Shown: piece by piece, positions 16,220-20,164 of the stretch | Layout of the letters: each line of letters starts with the position of its first letter | How positions within the stretch are numbered: the stretch's first letter is position 1 | Assembly (NCBI RefSeq): GCF_014197255.1 | Contig: NZ_JACIFE010000001.1 | Span: 186,001-250,000, forward strand | Length of the DNA stretch: 64,000 nt | Reading direction: 5' to 3' | DNA from: Bartonella fuyuanensis | Lineage (GTDB): Bacteria > Pseudomonadota > Alphaproteobacteria > Rhizobiales > Rhizobiaceae | Program-made: the position numbers and the translations under genes | Notes under the pieces: model-generated | Database searches by the model: none | Seen by the model: the letters and a program-made list of their open reading frames with translations, nothing else | Told to the model about the DNA's origin: nothing

Positions 16220-16930
16220 ATGCGGGAAATTATTTTTGATACAGAAACAACAGGTTTAGATAAAGAAAAAGATCGCATAATCGAAATTGGTTGTGTAGAG
16301 ATGGTTGATCGTTACCTTACGGGGCGTCAATTCCATGTTTATTTAAATCCACAAGGTGTTATTATTCCTGATGAAGTTGCGGCAATTCACGGATTAACTA
16401 ATGAACGCCTGAAAAACGAGAAAAGTTTTAGTGATATTGTCGATGAATTTTTGGAATTTATTAAGGGTGCAACAATGGTTGCACATAATGCGAGTTTTGA
16501 TATTGGTTTTATTAATGCAGAATTAAAGCGCGTTAATAGGCCGCTTATCAGTATTGATAATATTCTTGATACATTGGCTATAGCACGTCGTAAATTTCCT
16601 ATGGGTCCTAATTCTCTTGATATTTTATGTAAACGCTTTGGAATTGATAACAGCCATCGTGTTCTTCATGGTGCTTTACTTGATGCAGAGATTTTGGCCG
16701 ACGTTTATATTGAACTAATTGGTGGAAAGCAGGGCGTATTGGGTTTTGATAACAGAAAGAGTATTGATGAACAATATATACAAAGTAACAAAGATACGTC
16801 TTATGCAGTTAAATTTCGCCCCCAGGCTTTACCTTCAAGATTGAGTGTGCAAGAAAAAAGGTTGCATGCTGATTTTGTCAATAAAATTGGTAAAAAGGCT
16901 CTGTGGAATAACTACAAAGTTTATGAATAA
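16220..16930 (+). CDS. dnaQ: DNA polymerase III epsilon subunit (3'-5' proofreading exonuclease)
   Basis: DEDDh exonuclease. Exo I is IIFDTETTG (Asp7, Glu9), exo II is AHNASFDIGF, exo III is HGALLDAEILADVY with the catalytic His. A C-terminal tail of ~60 residues beyond the nuclease fits the alpha-subunit-binding segment. 236 aa. Four bases separate it from coaE. Many relatives have secB next; here the next element is the candidate sRNA and then polA. Confidence 0.96.
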   Translation: MREIIFDTETTGLDKEKDRIIEIGCVEMVDRYLTGRQFHVYLNPQGVIIPDEVAAIHGLTNERLKNEKSFSDIVDEFLEFIKGATMVAHNASFDIGFINAELKRVNRPLISIDNILDTLAIARRKFPMGPNSLDILCKRFGIDNSHRVLHGALLDAEILADVYIELIGGKQGVLGFDNRKSIDEQYIQSNKDTSYAVKFRPQALPSRLSVQEKRLHADFVNKIGKKALWNNYKVYE

Positions 16931-16987: not shown

Positions 16988-17030
16988 AAAAAAAAATGGC
17001 CGTTGTGGGGAGGGGAACACCACAACGACC
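16988..17030 (-). terminator. Rho-independent terminator of the candidate sRNA
   Basis: On the minus strand, GGTCGTTGTGG pairs with CCCACAACGGCC across a loop rich in U and C, followed by A and nine consecutive T. Stem, loop and T-tract are only in terminator order on the minus strand; on the plus strand the T-tract is missing. Confidence 0.85.
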
Positions 17031-17150
17031 CTGTCGCTACATTGTACCTCAGCTATCATAGGAGGAGCAAAATGAAAGCTATTAATCCTGTAACAGCAAA
17101 GAAAAGCTCTAGGTACTTAACATAAAGTGCAACGACACCGTGCTTTATGA
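16988..17150 (-). ncRNA. Candidate trans-acting small RNA with anti-Shine-Dalgarno loops (possible EcpR1 homologue)
   Basis: On the minus strand this spacer reads as a three-hairpin RNA. SL1 is CATAAAG...CTTTATG (17149-17143 with 17127-17121). SL2 is GTACCT-AG-AGCT pairing with AGCT-G-AGGTAC (17116-17105 with 17054-17044); its long loop contains GCTCCTCC. SL3 is a G+C-rich terminator hairpin (17030-16998), with CCCCTCC in the loop and 3' arm, followed by nine U residues. The gene sits beside polA, where, as I recall, the Rhizobiales cell-cycle sRNA EcpR1 is encoded in Sinorhizobium. Homology to EcpR1 is inference; the 5' end is approximate and I could not fix a promoter. Confidence 0.6.
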
Positions 17151-17257
17151 AAAGAAAAAATGGCTTTTTAGAGGCAAAATGAAAAAATTAAAATAAAAAT
17201 GAAAAAAATATATAAAAGTAATTTGTTTTTTAGCTGAAATGGAGAAATAAAATTGTC

Positions 17258-20164
17258 ATGAAAACAACAGATCATCTATTGTTGGTCGATGGATCAGGCT
17301 ACGTTTTTCGTGCTTACTATGCTTTGCCGCCTTTAAAACGCAAAAAAGATGGACTTCCTGTAGGGGCAGTAGCTGGTTTTTGTAATATGCTATGGAAATT
17401 ACTTTGTGATGCTCGTAATACAACGACAGGGATTGTTCCAACACATTTTGCTGTTATTTTTGATTATTCATCTGATACTTTTCGAAAACAAATTTATCCT
17501 CAATATAAATCGAATCGCGCTGAACCTCCAGAAGATCTAATTCCTCAATTTTCTTTGATACGTCAAGCAACCAAGGCTTTTAATTTGCCTTGTGTTGAAA
17601 AGGAAGGTTTTGAAGCAGATGATTTAATTGCTACCTATGCAAAATTAGCAACAAAGGTTGGAGTAAAAACGACTATTATCTCTTCTGATAAGGATCTTAT
17701 GCAACTCGTAAATACACGTGTATCCTTATATGACGGAATGAAAGATAAACATATAGGCATATCAGAAGTTATAGAAAAATGGGGTGTTACCCCTGAAAAA
17801 ATGATTGATTTACAAGCTTTGATTGGAGATTCAACAGATAATGTACCAGGTATTCCCGGCATTGGTCCAAAAACTGCAGCTCAGTTGTTAAATCAATTTG
17901 GTTCTCTTGATCTTTTGTTTCAACACGTAACGGAAATTAAACAAACCAAACGACGTGAAAACATTCAAACTTATAAAGAACAAGTTAAAATTTCTCGTGA
18001 ACTTGTTAGGCTTAGAACAGATGTTCCTATAGATAGTAATTTAGATGACTTTATTTTAGAACCACAAGATGGGCCACGCTTAATTGCTTTTTTGAAAGCA
18101 ATGGAGTTTTCAACATTAACACGTCGCGTGGCAGAGGCAACGAAATGTGATGCAGCTGTTATTGATGCTCTCGATATAGATGTTGAATGGAAAAAAACTA
18201 GTTATGGGCATGATTCTGATATCAAAAACACTGAAGGCGCATCTTGTAATAATTTTTCTGAAAATTCGCCACAATATTTTGCACAAAAACGTAAAAATCA
18301 AGCACTAACTCAAAAAATTACAAGAGATACTTACACAACAATTCTTGATACGGAAGTTTTAAAAGAGTGGTTATGGCAAGCACAAGAACAGGGTTTTTTC
18401 GCTTTTGATACTGAAACAACATCTCTTAATCCGATGCAAGCAAAGCTTGTTGGTTTCTCACTTGCATTACAGCCGGGAAAAGCAGCTTATATACCTCTTG
18501 AACATTTTGAAGAAAAAAATGACCTTTTAAGGGACGGACGCATTGCCTTGCAGATTGAGACAAAAAAAGCCGTAGAACTTTTAAAACCGATTCTAGAGGA
18601 TTCAGGGGTGTTAAAAATTGGTCAGAATATAAAATATGATTGGTTGGTGATGAAGCAATACGATATTGTTATACATCCTTTTGATGATACAATGCTTTTG
18701 TCCTATGCTCTGGACGCTGGAACTTTAACTCATAATATGGATGATTTGTCTGAACGTTGGCTTGGACATAAACCAATTGCCTATAAGGATTTAACGCATA
18801 AAGGAAAAAAAATTACTTCTTTTGCACAAGTAGATTTAAAACAAGCAACTCTTTATGCAGCAGAAGATGCTGATATAACACTCCGCCTTTGGCAAATTTT
18901 GAAACCGCAACTTGTCGCTCAAGGCATGGTGAAAATTTATGAACGCTTTGATCGACCACTCGTAGAAGTTCTTGCAAGAATGGAAGAGCGCGGGATTCTT
19001 GTTGATAGGCAAATTTTATTGCGCCTTTCAGGAGAATTGGCGCAAACTGCTTTGATTCTAGAACAGGAAATTTATCAACTTTCTGATAAAAAGTTTAATC
19101 TTGCTTCGCCAAAACAATTAGGTGATATCCTTTTTGGCAAAATGGGATTGCCTGGAGGTGCTAAAACTAAAGGGGGACAATGGTCAACTTCTGCACAGAC
19201 CTTGGAAGAGTTAGCTGCTGAAGGTCATATTTTACCGCGTAAAATTATTGCGTGGCGTCAACTTACAAAGCTAAAATCTACTTATACAGATACTTTGCCT
19301 TCTTATATTTTTCCAAAAACAGGGCGTGTTCATACGAATTATTCTTTAGCAATAACATCAACAGGGCGGTTATCATCATCAGAGCCAAATTTACAAAATA
19401 TTCCAGTAAGAACTGCTGAAGGACGTAAAATCCGAACAGCTTTTATTGCTCCCAAAGGATATGTATTGCTTTCTGCTGATTATAGCCAAATTGAATTGCG
19501 CATTCTTGCTCATATTGCAGATATAAAAGCATTAAAAGAAGCTTTTGCGAAAGGGCATGATATTCATGCTATAACGGCATCACAAATGTTTGGTGTTGCA
19601 GTAGAGGGAATGCATTCAGATATACGACGGCGTGCAAAAGCAATTAATTTTGGGATTATTTATGGTATTTCAGCTTTTGGGTTAGCTAATCAATTGGGAA
19701 TTTCACGTCAAGAAGCGGGTCGTTATATTCAGTTATATTTTGAAAGATTTCCAGGAATTAAAGATTATATGGAAAAAACAAAAATCTTTGCCCGTGAAAA
19801 TGGTTATGTAGAAACAATTTTTAGACGTCGTATTTATTATCCAGAAATAAACGCAAAGGATGTAAAAATTCGTTCTCTTAATGAACGAGCAGCTATCAAC
19901 GCTCCAATTCAAGGTTCTGCTGCAGATATTATTCGTCGTGCTATGATACAGATGGAAGATGCTTTAAAAGAGGAAAATCTATCGGCAAAAATGTTGCTAC
20001 AAGTGCATGATGAACTGATTTTTGAAGTACCCAAAGAAGAGAGTAAAGAAACCATGGTTGTTGTTAAAAATGTTATGGAAAATGCTACAATGCCAGTTTT
20101 ATCTTTGTCTGTACCACTTGAAGTAAAAGTCATGACGGCTCAAAATTGGGATGAGGCACATTAA
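17258..20164 (+). CDS. polA: DNA polymerase I
   Basis: Repair and Okazaki-fragment polymerase, 968 aa with all three domains. The 5'-3' nuclease occupies about 1-290 (DGSGYVFRAYYALP, EADDLIATYA, GDSTDNVPGIPGIGPKTA). The 3'-5' exonuclease has its metal residues intact: Asp384 and Glu386 in FDTETT, then GQNIKYDW and YAAEDAD. The polymerase shows DYSQIELRILAH, RRRAKAINFGIIYG and catalytic HDE at about 917-919. Some alphaproteobacterial Pol I enzymes lack proofreading residues; this one keeps them. Confidence 0.97.
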   Translation: MKTTDHLLLVDGSGYVFRAYYALPPLKRKKDGLPVGAVAGFCNMLWKLLCDARNTTTGIVPTHFAVIFDYSSDTFRKQIYPQYKSNRAEPPEDLIPQFSLIRQATKAFNLPCVEKEGFEADDLIATYAKLATKVGVKTTIISSDKDLMQLVNTRVSLYDGMKDKHIGISEVIEKWGVTPEKMIDLQALIGDSTDNVPGIPGIGPKTAAQLLNQFGSLDLLFQHVTEIKQTKRRENIQTYKEQVKISRELVRLRTDVPIDSNLDDFILEPQDGPRLIAFLKAMEFSTLTRRVAEATKCDAAVIDALDIDVEWKKTSYGHDSDIKNTEGASCNNFSENSPQYFAQKRKNQALTQKITRDTYTTILDTEVLKEWLWQAQEQGFFAFDTETTSLNPMQAKLVGFSLALQPGKAAYIPLEHFEEKNDLLRDGRIALQIETKKAVELLKPILEDSGVLKIGQNIKYDWLVMKQYDIVIHPFDDTMLLSYALDAGTLTHNMDDLSERWLGHKPIAYKDLTHKGKKITSFAQVDLKQATLYAAEDADITLRLWQILKPQLVAQGMVKIYERFDRPLVEVLARMEERGILVDRQILLRLSGELAQTALILEQEIYQLSDKKFNLASPKQLGDILFGKMGLPGGAKTKGGQWSTSAQTLEELAAEGHILPRKIIAWRQLTKLKSTYTDTLPSYIFPKTGRVHTNYSLAITSTGRLSSSEPNLQNIPVRTAEGRKIRTAFIAPKGYVLLSADYSQIELRILAHIADIKALKEAFAKGHDIHAITASQMFGVAVEGMHSDIRRRAKAINFGIIYGISAFGLANQLGISRQEAGRYIQLYFERFPGIKDYMEKTKIFARENGYVETIFRRRIYYPEINAKDVKIRSLNERAAINAPIQGSAADIIRRAMIQMEDALKEENLSAKMLLQVHDELIFEVPKEESKETMVVVKNVMENATMPVLSLSVPLEVKVMTAQNWDEAH

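What the first reader, a model, noticed from the sequence alone, without database searches (positions are those of the whole stretch)
16988..17150. Three-hairpin minus-strand sRNA with two anti-Shine-Dalgarno loops beside polA
Reading the minus strand gives three ordered hairpins, the last a G+C-rich terminator stem followed by nine U. Two exposed segments (CUCCUCC and CCCCUCC) are complementary to ribosome binding sites, so the RNA could repress translation of many mRNAs. The stretch looks like a gene-free leader on the plus strand and would be missed by gene finders. Position next to polA recalls the EcpR1 cell-cycle sRNA of Rhizobiales, whose targets there include dnaA and gcrA; that link is from memory.
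Basis: partly seen in the sequence, partly recalled or inferred. Interest (0 to 1): 0.75.

Follow-up and report, generated by a model that had tools for sequence, protein, structure and literature searches.

The report
Remodelled polA-side small RNA in Bartonella
Next to its DNA polymerase I gene, this Bartonella appears to carry a small regulatory RNA gene that kept the start signal and C-rich end hairpin of a known rhizobial RNA family while its middle was rebuilt; it is a variant of a known kind, not a new kind.

Summary
The minus strand between dnaQ and polA very probably encodes a ~148-nt sRNA (about 17138 to 16991). The best model hit is at this spot in 71 of 71 Bartonella genomes. In 14 of them (a Bartonella apis genome included) it is a full ar7 RNA above Rfam's cut-off. 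In the other 57, window included, promoter box and C-rich terminator hairpin resemble those of ar7, but the ~105-nt 5' part is lineage-specific and folds into a long hairpin with compensatory changes. Most likely mechanism (inferred): this loop pairs with G-rich ribosome-binding regions. Repression of many mRNAs was not supported by small target tests. Expression in Bartonella is inferred.

The parts
17167..17172 (-). predicted -35 box, TCTAAA; aligns with CTTGAA of ar7 genes
   Evidence: TCTAAA or TCTGAA in 53 of 56 eubartonella spacers; CCCTTGAAA in 14 of 14 ar7-type Bartonella and CTTGAA in 15 of 16 loci of other genera
17144..17149 (-). predicted -10 box, CATAAA, 17 nt from the -35 box
   Evidence: sequence and position relative to the aligned -35 box; inferred, no transcript data
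16991..17138 (-). predicted sRNA, about 148 nt
   Evidence: z -5.11; R1 model hit at this place in 71 of 71 Bartonella genomes; 220 G-U cells on this strand against 2 for the other strand in P1-P3 and terminator
17129..17136 (-). P1, 5' arm
   Evidence: 98.4% of cells paired, 4 of 8 pairs changed on both sides
17033..17040 (-). P1, 3' arm
17112..17116 (-). P2, 5' arm
   Evidence: 99.6% paired, 1 of 5 pairs changed on both sides
17044..17048 (-). P2, 3' arm
17086..17097 (-). P3, 5' arm (one mismatch inside)
   Evidence: 100% paired in both of its segments, 2 of 11 pairs changed on both sides
17052..17063 (-). P3, 3' arm; contains part of the CUCCUCC motif
   Evidence: 99.1% paired, 2 of 8 pairs changed on both sides
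17061..17067 (-). CUCCUCC, anti-Shine-Dalgarno-like, mostly masked in the favoured fold
16998..17030 (-). terminator hairpin, homologous to the ar7 3' hairpin
   Evidence: 99.8% paired; R3 model of it has its best genome-wide hit at the ar7 3' hairpin in 14 of 14 ar7-type Bartonella genomes
17009..17015 (-). CCCCUCC in the terminator loop, the likely pairing seed
   Evidence: invariant columns in 54 sequences; 88% unpaired in 14 of 14 folded relatives
16988..16996 (-). run of nine U after the terminator stem
   Evidence: sequence
16220..16930 (+). dnaQ (name recalled from the protein), upstream neighbour
   Evidence: ORF; found by tblastn in reach of polA in 65 of the 70 polA loci examined, the other 5 stretches being too short
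17258..20164 (+). polA, divergent from the sRNA
   Evidence: ORF; N-terminal part found in 71 of 71 genomes

Best explanation
It is the Bartonella form of the ar7 sRNA gene. Shown by computation: same locus, direction away from polA, related -35 region, homologous C-rich terminator hairpin, and a single clear place per genome in 71 Bartonella genomes. In 57 of these (called eubartonella here, window included) the 5' two thirds is a long hairpin with no detectable ar7 similarity, most simply a rebuilding in their common ancestor. Inferred: a primary transcript of about 148 nt ends at its own terminator; the exposed, nearly invariant CCCCUCC loop pairs with G-rich stretches at or near ribosome-binding sites of a limited set of mRNAs and blocks their translation; the 5' hairpin stabilises the RNA and holds a second anti-SD motif that is free only when the alternative hairpin forms. 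Hfq may not be needed, by analogy with SmrC7 and sX13.
For: 71 of 71 best hits of R1 at the spacer, next-best place anywhere E 0.05; full ar7 above cut-off in 14 of 14 of the other Bartonella at the same spot; terminator model R3: best hit at the ar7 3' hairpin in 14 of 14 genomes, E 4.2e-8 to 1.5e-5, and in 11 of 18 named loci outside Bartonella at E <= 0.01 on the ar7 strand (16 of the 18 have ar7); -35 region; ar7 divergent from polA in 27 of 30 loci, no polA in reach in 3, and opposite polA in 18 of 20 named loci, no ar7 in 2; compensatory changes; strand bias of wobble pairs. SmrC7: 148-150 nt, about 13-fold up in nodules (PMC2780559), no Hfq pull-down signal (PMC2848018). sX13: C-rich loops repress G-rich mRNAs without Hfq (PMC3771888).
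Against: No transcript data from Bartonella seen. The 5' domain model R2 finds none of the 14 ar7-type Bartonella and nothing credible in 32 ar7-side loci, so homology of that part is not shown. The window scores only 13.6 bits with ar7 (cut-off 60). Sliding the 3' partners by +3 columns also gives 9 pairs changed on both sides, though only 63.1% of cells pair then. Target test: 44 window ORFs, energies of -8 kcal/mol or better at 8 starts against 8 controls (CCCCUCC loop) and 14 against 13 (CUCCUCC loop); means are 0.8-0.9 kcal/mol lower at starts.
Confidence: 0.68

Rival explanations
1. A plus-strand polA leader: a structured 5' UTR or leader peptide (17072-17125, 17 codons behind AGGAGGAG) that controls polA, with the minus-strand pattern as its mirror image.
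For: An SD-like sequence and ATG lie on the plus strand in 49 of 56 spacers; the plus strand also folds somewhat better than shuffles (z -2.29).
Against: No ATG in 7 of 56; the reading frame differs between lineages (13 codons in 20, 17 codons in 18); wobble pairs fit the minus strand, 220 against 2 cells; promoter box and U-run are on the minus strand; the ar7 transcript of S. meliloti is divergent from polA (PMC2573895).
Confidence: 0.05
2. An ar14 / cuckoo-type sRNA with anti-SD loops.
For: Best weak Rfam hit of the stretch, 20.8 bits, E 0.063; both motifs are anti-SD-like.
Against: Cut-off is 58.8 bits; no CCUCCUCCC with up to one mismatch lies in 16988-17150; the best-supported structure is not three aSD hairpins; locus, promoter and terminator point to ar7.
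Confidence: 0.03
3. A new sRNA that arose at the polA locus and took over only the old terminator and promoter by chance of position, so it is unrelated to ar7 in function.
For: R2 shows a 5' domain with no ar7 similarity.
Against: The C-rich terminator loop, the part most likely to pair with targets, is among the most conserved parts on both sides.
Confidence: 0.2
4. EcpR1 homologue.
Against: Different locus and loop; the only exact copy of the loop motif in the genome lies inside a long ORF (integrase-like, name recalled) and gives no Rfam match.
Confidence: 0.01

Closest known systems
ar7 family (RF02342; SmrC7 / sra03 / SmelC023 of Sinorhizobium meliloti)
   Same: Locus beside polA and direction away from it, related -35 region, C-rich terminator hairpin, about 148 nt
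   Different: 5' domain unrelated by model R2; the two middle hairpins with GUCCCCCGCC and CCCCUCUCC loops are missing; 13.6 bits against a cut-off of 60
ar14 / cuckoo-type RNAs (NfeR1)
   Same: Anti-Shine-Dalgarno-like C-rich loops (PMC7143759, passages)
   Different: No CCUCCUCCC, one place per genome, other locus, below cut-off
sX13 of Xanthomonas
   Same: Beside polA, C-rich loops (PMC3771888, passages)
   Different: Downstream of polA, three stem-loops; its authors state no sequence similarity to ar7; no sequence comparison with the window was made here
BbsR14 of Bartonella bacilliformis
   Same: A Bartonella sRNA with two anti-SD loops (PMC7717549, passages)
   Different: Its loop sequence twice in tandem lies at G007:C1:1360593, whereas the polA-side RNA of that genome (L032) lacks it
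EcpR1 (SmelC291)
   Same: A Rhizobiales sRNA
   Different: Locus divK-pleD/rpmG (PMC4414408); loop motif not at this locus

Membership tests
ar7 (RF02342) | Beside polA and divergent from it | tested here: met
   window; R1 hit in the polA spacer in 71 of 71 genomes; ar7 itself
ar7 (RF02342) | CTTGAA-type -35 box about 35 nt upstream of the start | tested here: inconclusive
   window has TCTAAA; 8 of 56 eubartonella have TCTGAA; flanking letters are conserved
ar7 (RF02342) | G+C-rich terminator hairpin with C-rich loop | tested here: met
   R3: 14 of 14 ar7-type Bartonella genomes, 11 of 18 named loci outside Bartonella at E <= 0.01
ar7 (RF02342) | Two middle hairpins with conserved C-rich loops | tested here: not met
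   R2 finds no ar7 locus; alignment A1 shows another structure
ar7 (RF02342) | Covariance-model score at or above 60 bits | tested here: not met
   13.6 bits in the window; none of 6 eubartonella loci at E <= 1, while 14 of 14 ar7-type Bartonella loci pass
ar7 (RF02342) | Expressed as a ~150-nt RNA | not testable with these tools
   predicted 148 nt; SmrC7 is 148-150 nt
ar14 (RF02344) | CCUCCUCCC loops and score at or above 58.8 bits | tested here: not met
   20.8 bits; no such motif in 16988-17150 with up to 1 mismatch
EcpR1 (SmelC291) | Loop motif UCCGCCGCAUCU | tested here: not met
   not at the locus with up to 2 mismatches
EcpR1 (SmelC291) | Locus between divK-pleD and rpmG | tested here: not met
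   locus is dnaQ-polA; EcpR1 locus from PMC4414408

The most novel reading that the evidence does not exclude
A modular sRNA gene: promoter and C-rich terminator hairpin were kept across Rhizobiales while the 5' body was swapped in the ancestor of the 57 eubartonella, and the new body is a two-state gate (P3 against the alternative hairpin, sharing one strand) that hides or exposes a second anti-Shine-Dalgarno motif.
Probability: 0.22. Interest if true: 0.6.

Novelty: new variant of a known kind. Interest (0 to 1): 0.4.

Why it matters
It gives a concrete sRNA candidate in each of the 71 Bartonella genomes searched, at the place where the rhizobial ar7 RNA sits, and shows an sRNA gene whose ends look old and whose body looks new. 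That makes it testable which part carries the regulation and whether targets were kept when the body changed. It also shows that the current Rfam ar7 model passes over this lineage.

Tried and rejected
EcpR1 as relative: rejected on locus and loop. ar14/cuckoo: weak hit only. Other weak Rfam hits (MIR4208, FinP, PK-BYV) were taken as chance. BbsR14 as the same RNA: its loop sequence lies elsewhere. Plus-strand leader peptide: rejected on start and frame changes. Hairpin 1: rejected. Targets: no clear enrichment at 44 window ORFs (ORFs and starts chosen by a simple script); in the own genome 33 GGAGGGG-N-ATG sites against 18 for the reversed pattern and 16 AGGAGGAG-N-ATG sites against 6; of the 31 of 49 sites looked at, 18 open no ORF of 40 codons at that ATG, and whether the other 13 are true gene starts was not tested. 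A P1-like long-range pairing in the ar7-type Bartonella was looked at by eye only and is not consistent. R1 hits outside eubartonella could come mainly from the terminator, so R2 and R3 were built to separate the modules.

Rows dropped: L010 and L029 repeat other rows and are not in A1; G069 was not fetched; A2 uses 32 and A3 25 of the 54 rows of A1. The promoter check used 16 of the 18 ar7 loci (the two Bartonella loci left out). The genome search used stricter filters, which can lose weak matches.

Literature: searches; in their listings and in the passages I read no paper places an sRNA at polA in Bartonella. This covers open-licence PMC papers only. Against a clean absence: PMC3927594 says of seven families taken together, SmelC023 among them, that they comprise members in Bartonellaceae too, though for SmelC023 itself it names only Rhizobiaceae, Brucellaceae and Phyllobacteriaceae. 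The supplement of PMC7717549, which lists 160 B. bacilliformis sRNAs, could not be read, so this RNA may be in that list. del Val 2012 (PMC3346310) is not held.

Full report
What is there. The window is from a Bartonella near B. queenslandensis and B. tribocorum (92-93% identity over 300 residues of PolA). Gene names dnaQ and polA are recalled from the proteins. Between dnaQ (16220-16930) and polA (17258-20164) lies a 327-bp spacer. The minus strand of 16988-17150 folds with z -4.09. Rfam lists nothing in the window at curated cut-offs; with a free threshold the stretch gives ar14 20.8 bits and ar7 13.6 bits, both far below cut-off.

Which known RNA sits at polA. EcpR1 lies between divK-pleD and rpmG (PMC4414408, passages). 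The polA-side RNA of Rhizobiales is sra03 = SmrC7 = SmelC023 = ar7: PMC2245857 puts sra03 between polA and Y02851 (passages); PMC2573895 gives polA<, sRNA>, SMc02851> and Northern bands of about 140 and 90 nt (passages); PMC3927594 says that all RNAs of the SmelC023 family but one are adjacent to a DNA polymerase I gene, and reports 29 relatives in Rhizobiaceae, Brucellaceae and Phyllobacteriaceae (passages). PMC3771888 compares polA-side sRNAs (Spot42, ar7, sX13) and notes apical C-rich motifs in ar7 (passages).

The locus in Bartonella. The spacer was sought in 71 genomes of the genus: 60 match by DNA, 57 of them at the spacer and three (G004, G058, G063) only by short matches elsewhere. polA was found in 71 of 71. 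In the GTDB family, 166 of 199 genomes have ar7 at E <= 0.01 and 133 above the cut-off; the window's genome and two other Bartonella seen in the listing have none; 13 genomes without a match were not listed. Of the 30 best ar7 loci 27 show polA, always divergent; 3 show none in the fetched stretch. Of 20 named loci 18 have ar7 opposite polA; Oricola indica and Aminobacter carboxidus do not.

Structure. 54 distinct eubartonella sequences were aligned. P1, P2, P3 and the terminator pair in 99.5% of cells; 10 of 35 pairs are changed on both sides against 2.9 in shuffles, and 0 of 500 shuffles reach this; sliding partners by +3 columns gives 9 such pairs but only 63.1% paired cells. RNAalifold on its own gives the same helices plus a small one. 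Its hairpin 2 is as well conserved as P3, but the two share a strand. In 14 folded relatives CCCCUCC is 88% unpaired and the stretch around CUCCUCC 23-58%. Wobble pairs: 220 G-U cells on the minus strand against 2 cells that would be G-U on the plus strand, which points to the minus strand as the functional RNA. The plus-strand mini-ORF lacks a start in 7 of 56 and changes frame between lineages.

Homology by module. R1 (whole RNA) has its best hit in the polA spacer in 71 of 71 genomes, 29.8-50 bits in the 14 ar7-type ones; the next-best place in any genome has E 0.05. On 18 loci outside Bartonella, 8 match R1 at E <= 0.01, Brucella pituitosa best (37.6 bits). R2 (5' domain only) finds 57 of 71 genomes and none of the 14, and nothing credible in 32 ar7-side loci (one match, E 0.71). 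R3 (terminator only) has its best genome-wide hit at the ar7 3' hairpin in 14 of 14 genomes, E 4.2e-8 to 1.5e-5, and the next-best place other than the same hairpin on the other strand has E 0.039 or more; on 18 loci outside Bartonella, 16 of which have ar7, 11 match on the ar7 strand at E <= 0.01. The -35 region agrees: CCCTTGAAA in 14 of 14 ar7-type Bartonella, CTTGAA in 15 of 16 loci of other genera, TCTAAA or TCTGAA in 53 of 56 eubartonella, followed by AAGCCAT in most. A review lists RpoD and RpoH1/2 for SmelC023 (PMC7143759, table passage). So the ends are ar7-like and the body is not. By the membership rule I do not file it as an ar7 member; I call it a remodelled descendant of that gene.

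How it works. SmrC7 has mapped 5' ends, a length of 148-150 nt and a 106-nt processed form, and is about 13-fold up in nodules (PMC2780559, passages and section 8); it gave no signal in an Hfq pull-down, which its authors read as absence or weak binding (PMC2848018, passages). sX13 shows that C-rich loops can repress mRNAs with G-rich motifs without Hfq. By analogy the nearly invariant CCCCUCC terminator loop is the likely seed. This step is inference. The target tests give little support for broad repression: at 44 window ORFs strong pairing is as frequent as in controls (8 against 8; 14 against 13), though mean energies are 0.8-0.9 kcal/mol lower at starts; perfect complements before an ATG are about twice as frequent as the reversed control in the genome (33 against 18; 16 against 6), but 18 of 31 sites looked at open no ORF of 40 codons.

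Verdict. The two-state gate is suggestive only: in L034 one change in the shared strand goes with matching changes in both partner arms (read), a single event.

Noticed in passing
L219 (G007:C1:1360593-1360636, minus strand): Two TTCCTCCTAA-type motifs in tandem, in hairpins before a GC-rich hairpin with a T-run, in G007 and G008 (G008 has the contig length of the B. bacilliformis Ver097 record); probably the published BbsR14, though the paper's main text gives no place.
   Followed up: partly
L134: A record titled Bacillus subtilis SK6B4 carries a polA 74% identical to the Bartonella one and an ar7 RNA beside it; it looks like a Rhizobiales contig under a wrong name.
   Followed up: no
L141, L153: Oricola indica and Aminobacter carboxidus loci show no ar7 at the gathering score beside polA, unlike 18 other named loci.
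   Followed up: no
spacers of L052-L065: The dnaQ-polA spacer is longer in the ar7-type Bartonella (394-719 bp in the 9 of 14 loci where dnaQ was in reach) than in eubartonella (270-344 bp in 56 loci).
   Followed up: no
17072-17125 (+): A 17-codon plus-strand ORF behind AGGAGGAG, the mirror image of the anti-SD motif; start or frame not conserved.
   Followed up: yes
L221 (G000:C21:11953-11964): The only exact EcpR1 loop motif in the genome lies inside a 356-codon ORF that looks like an integrase (name recalled); taken as chance.
   Followed up: yes
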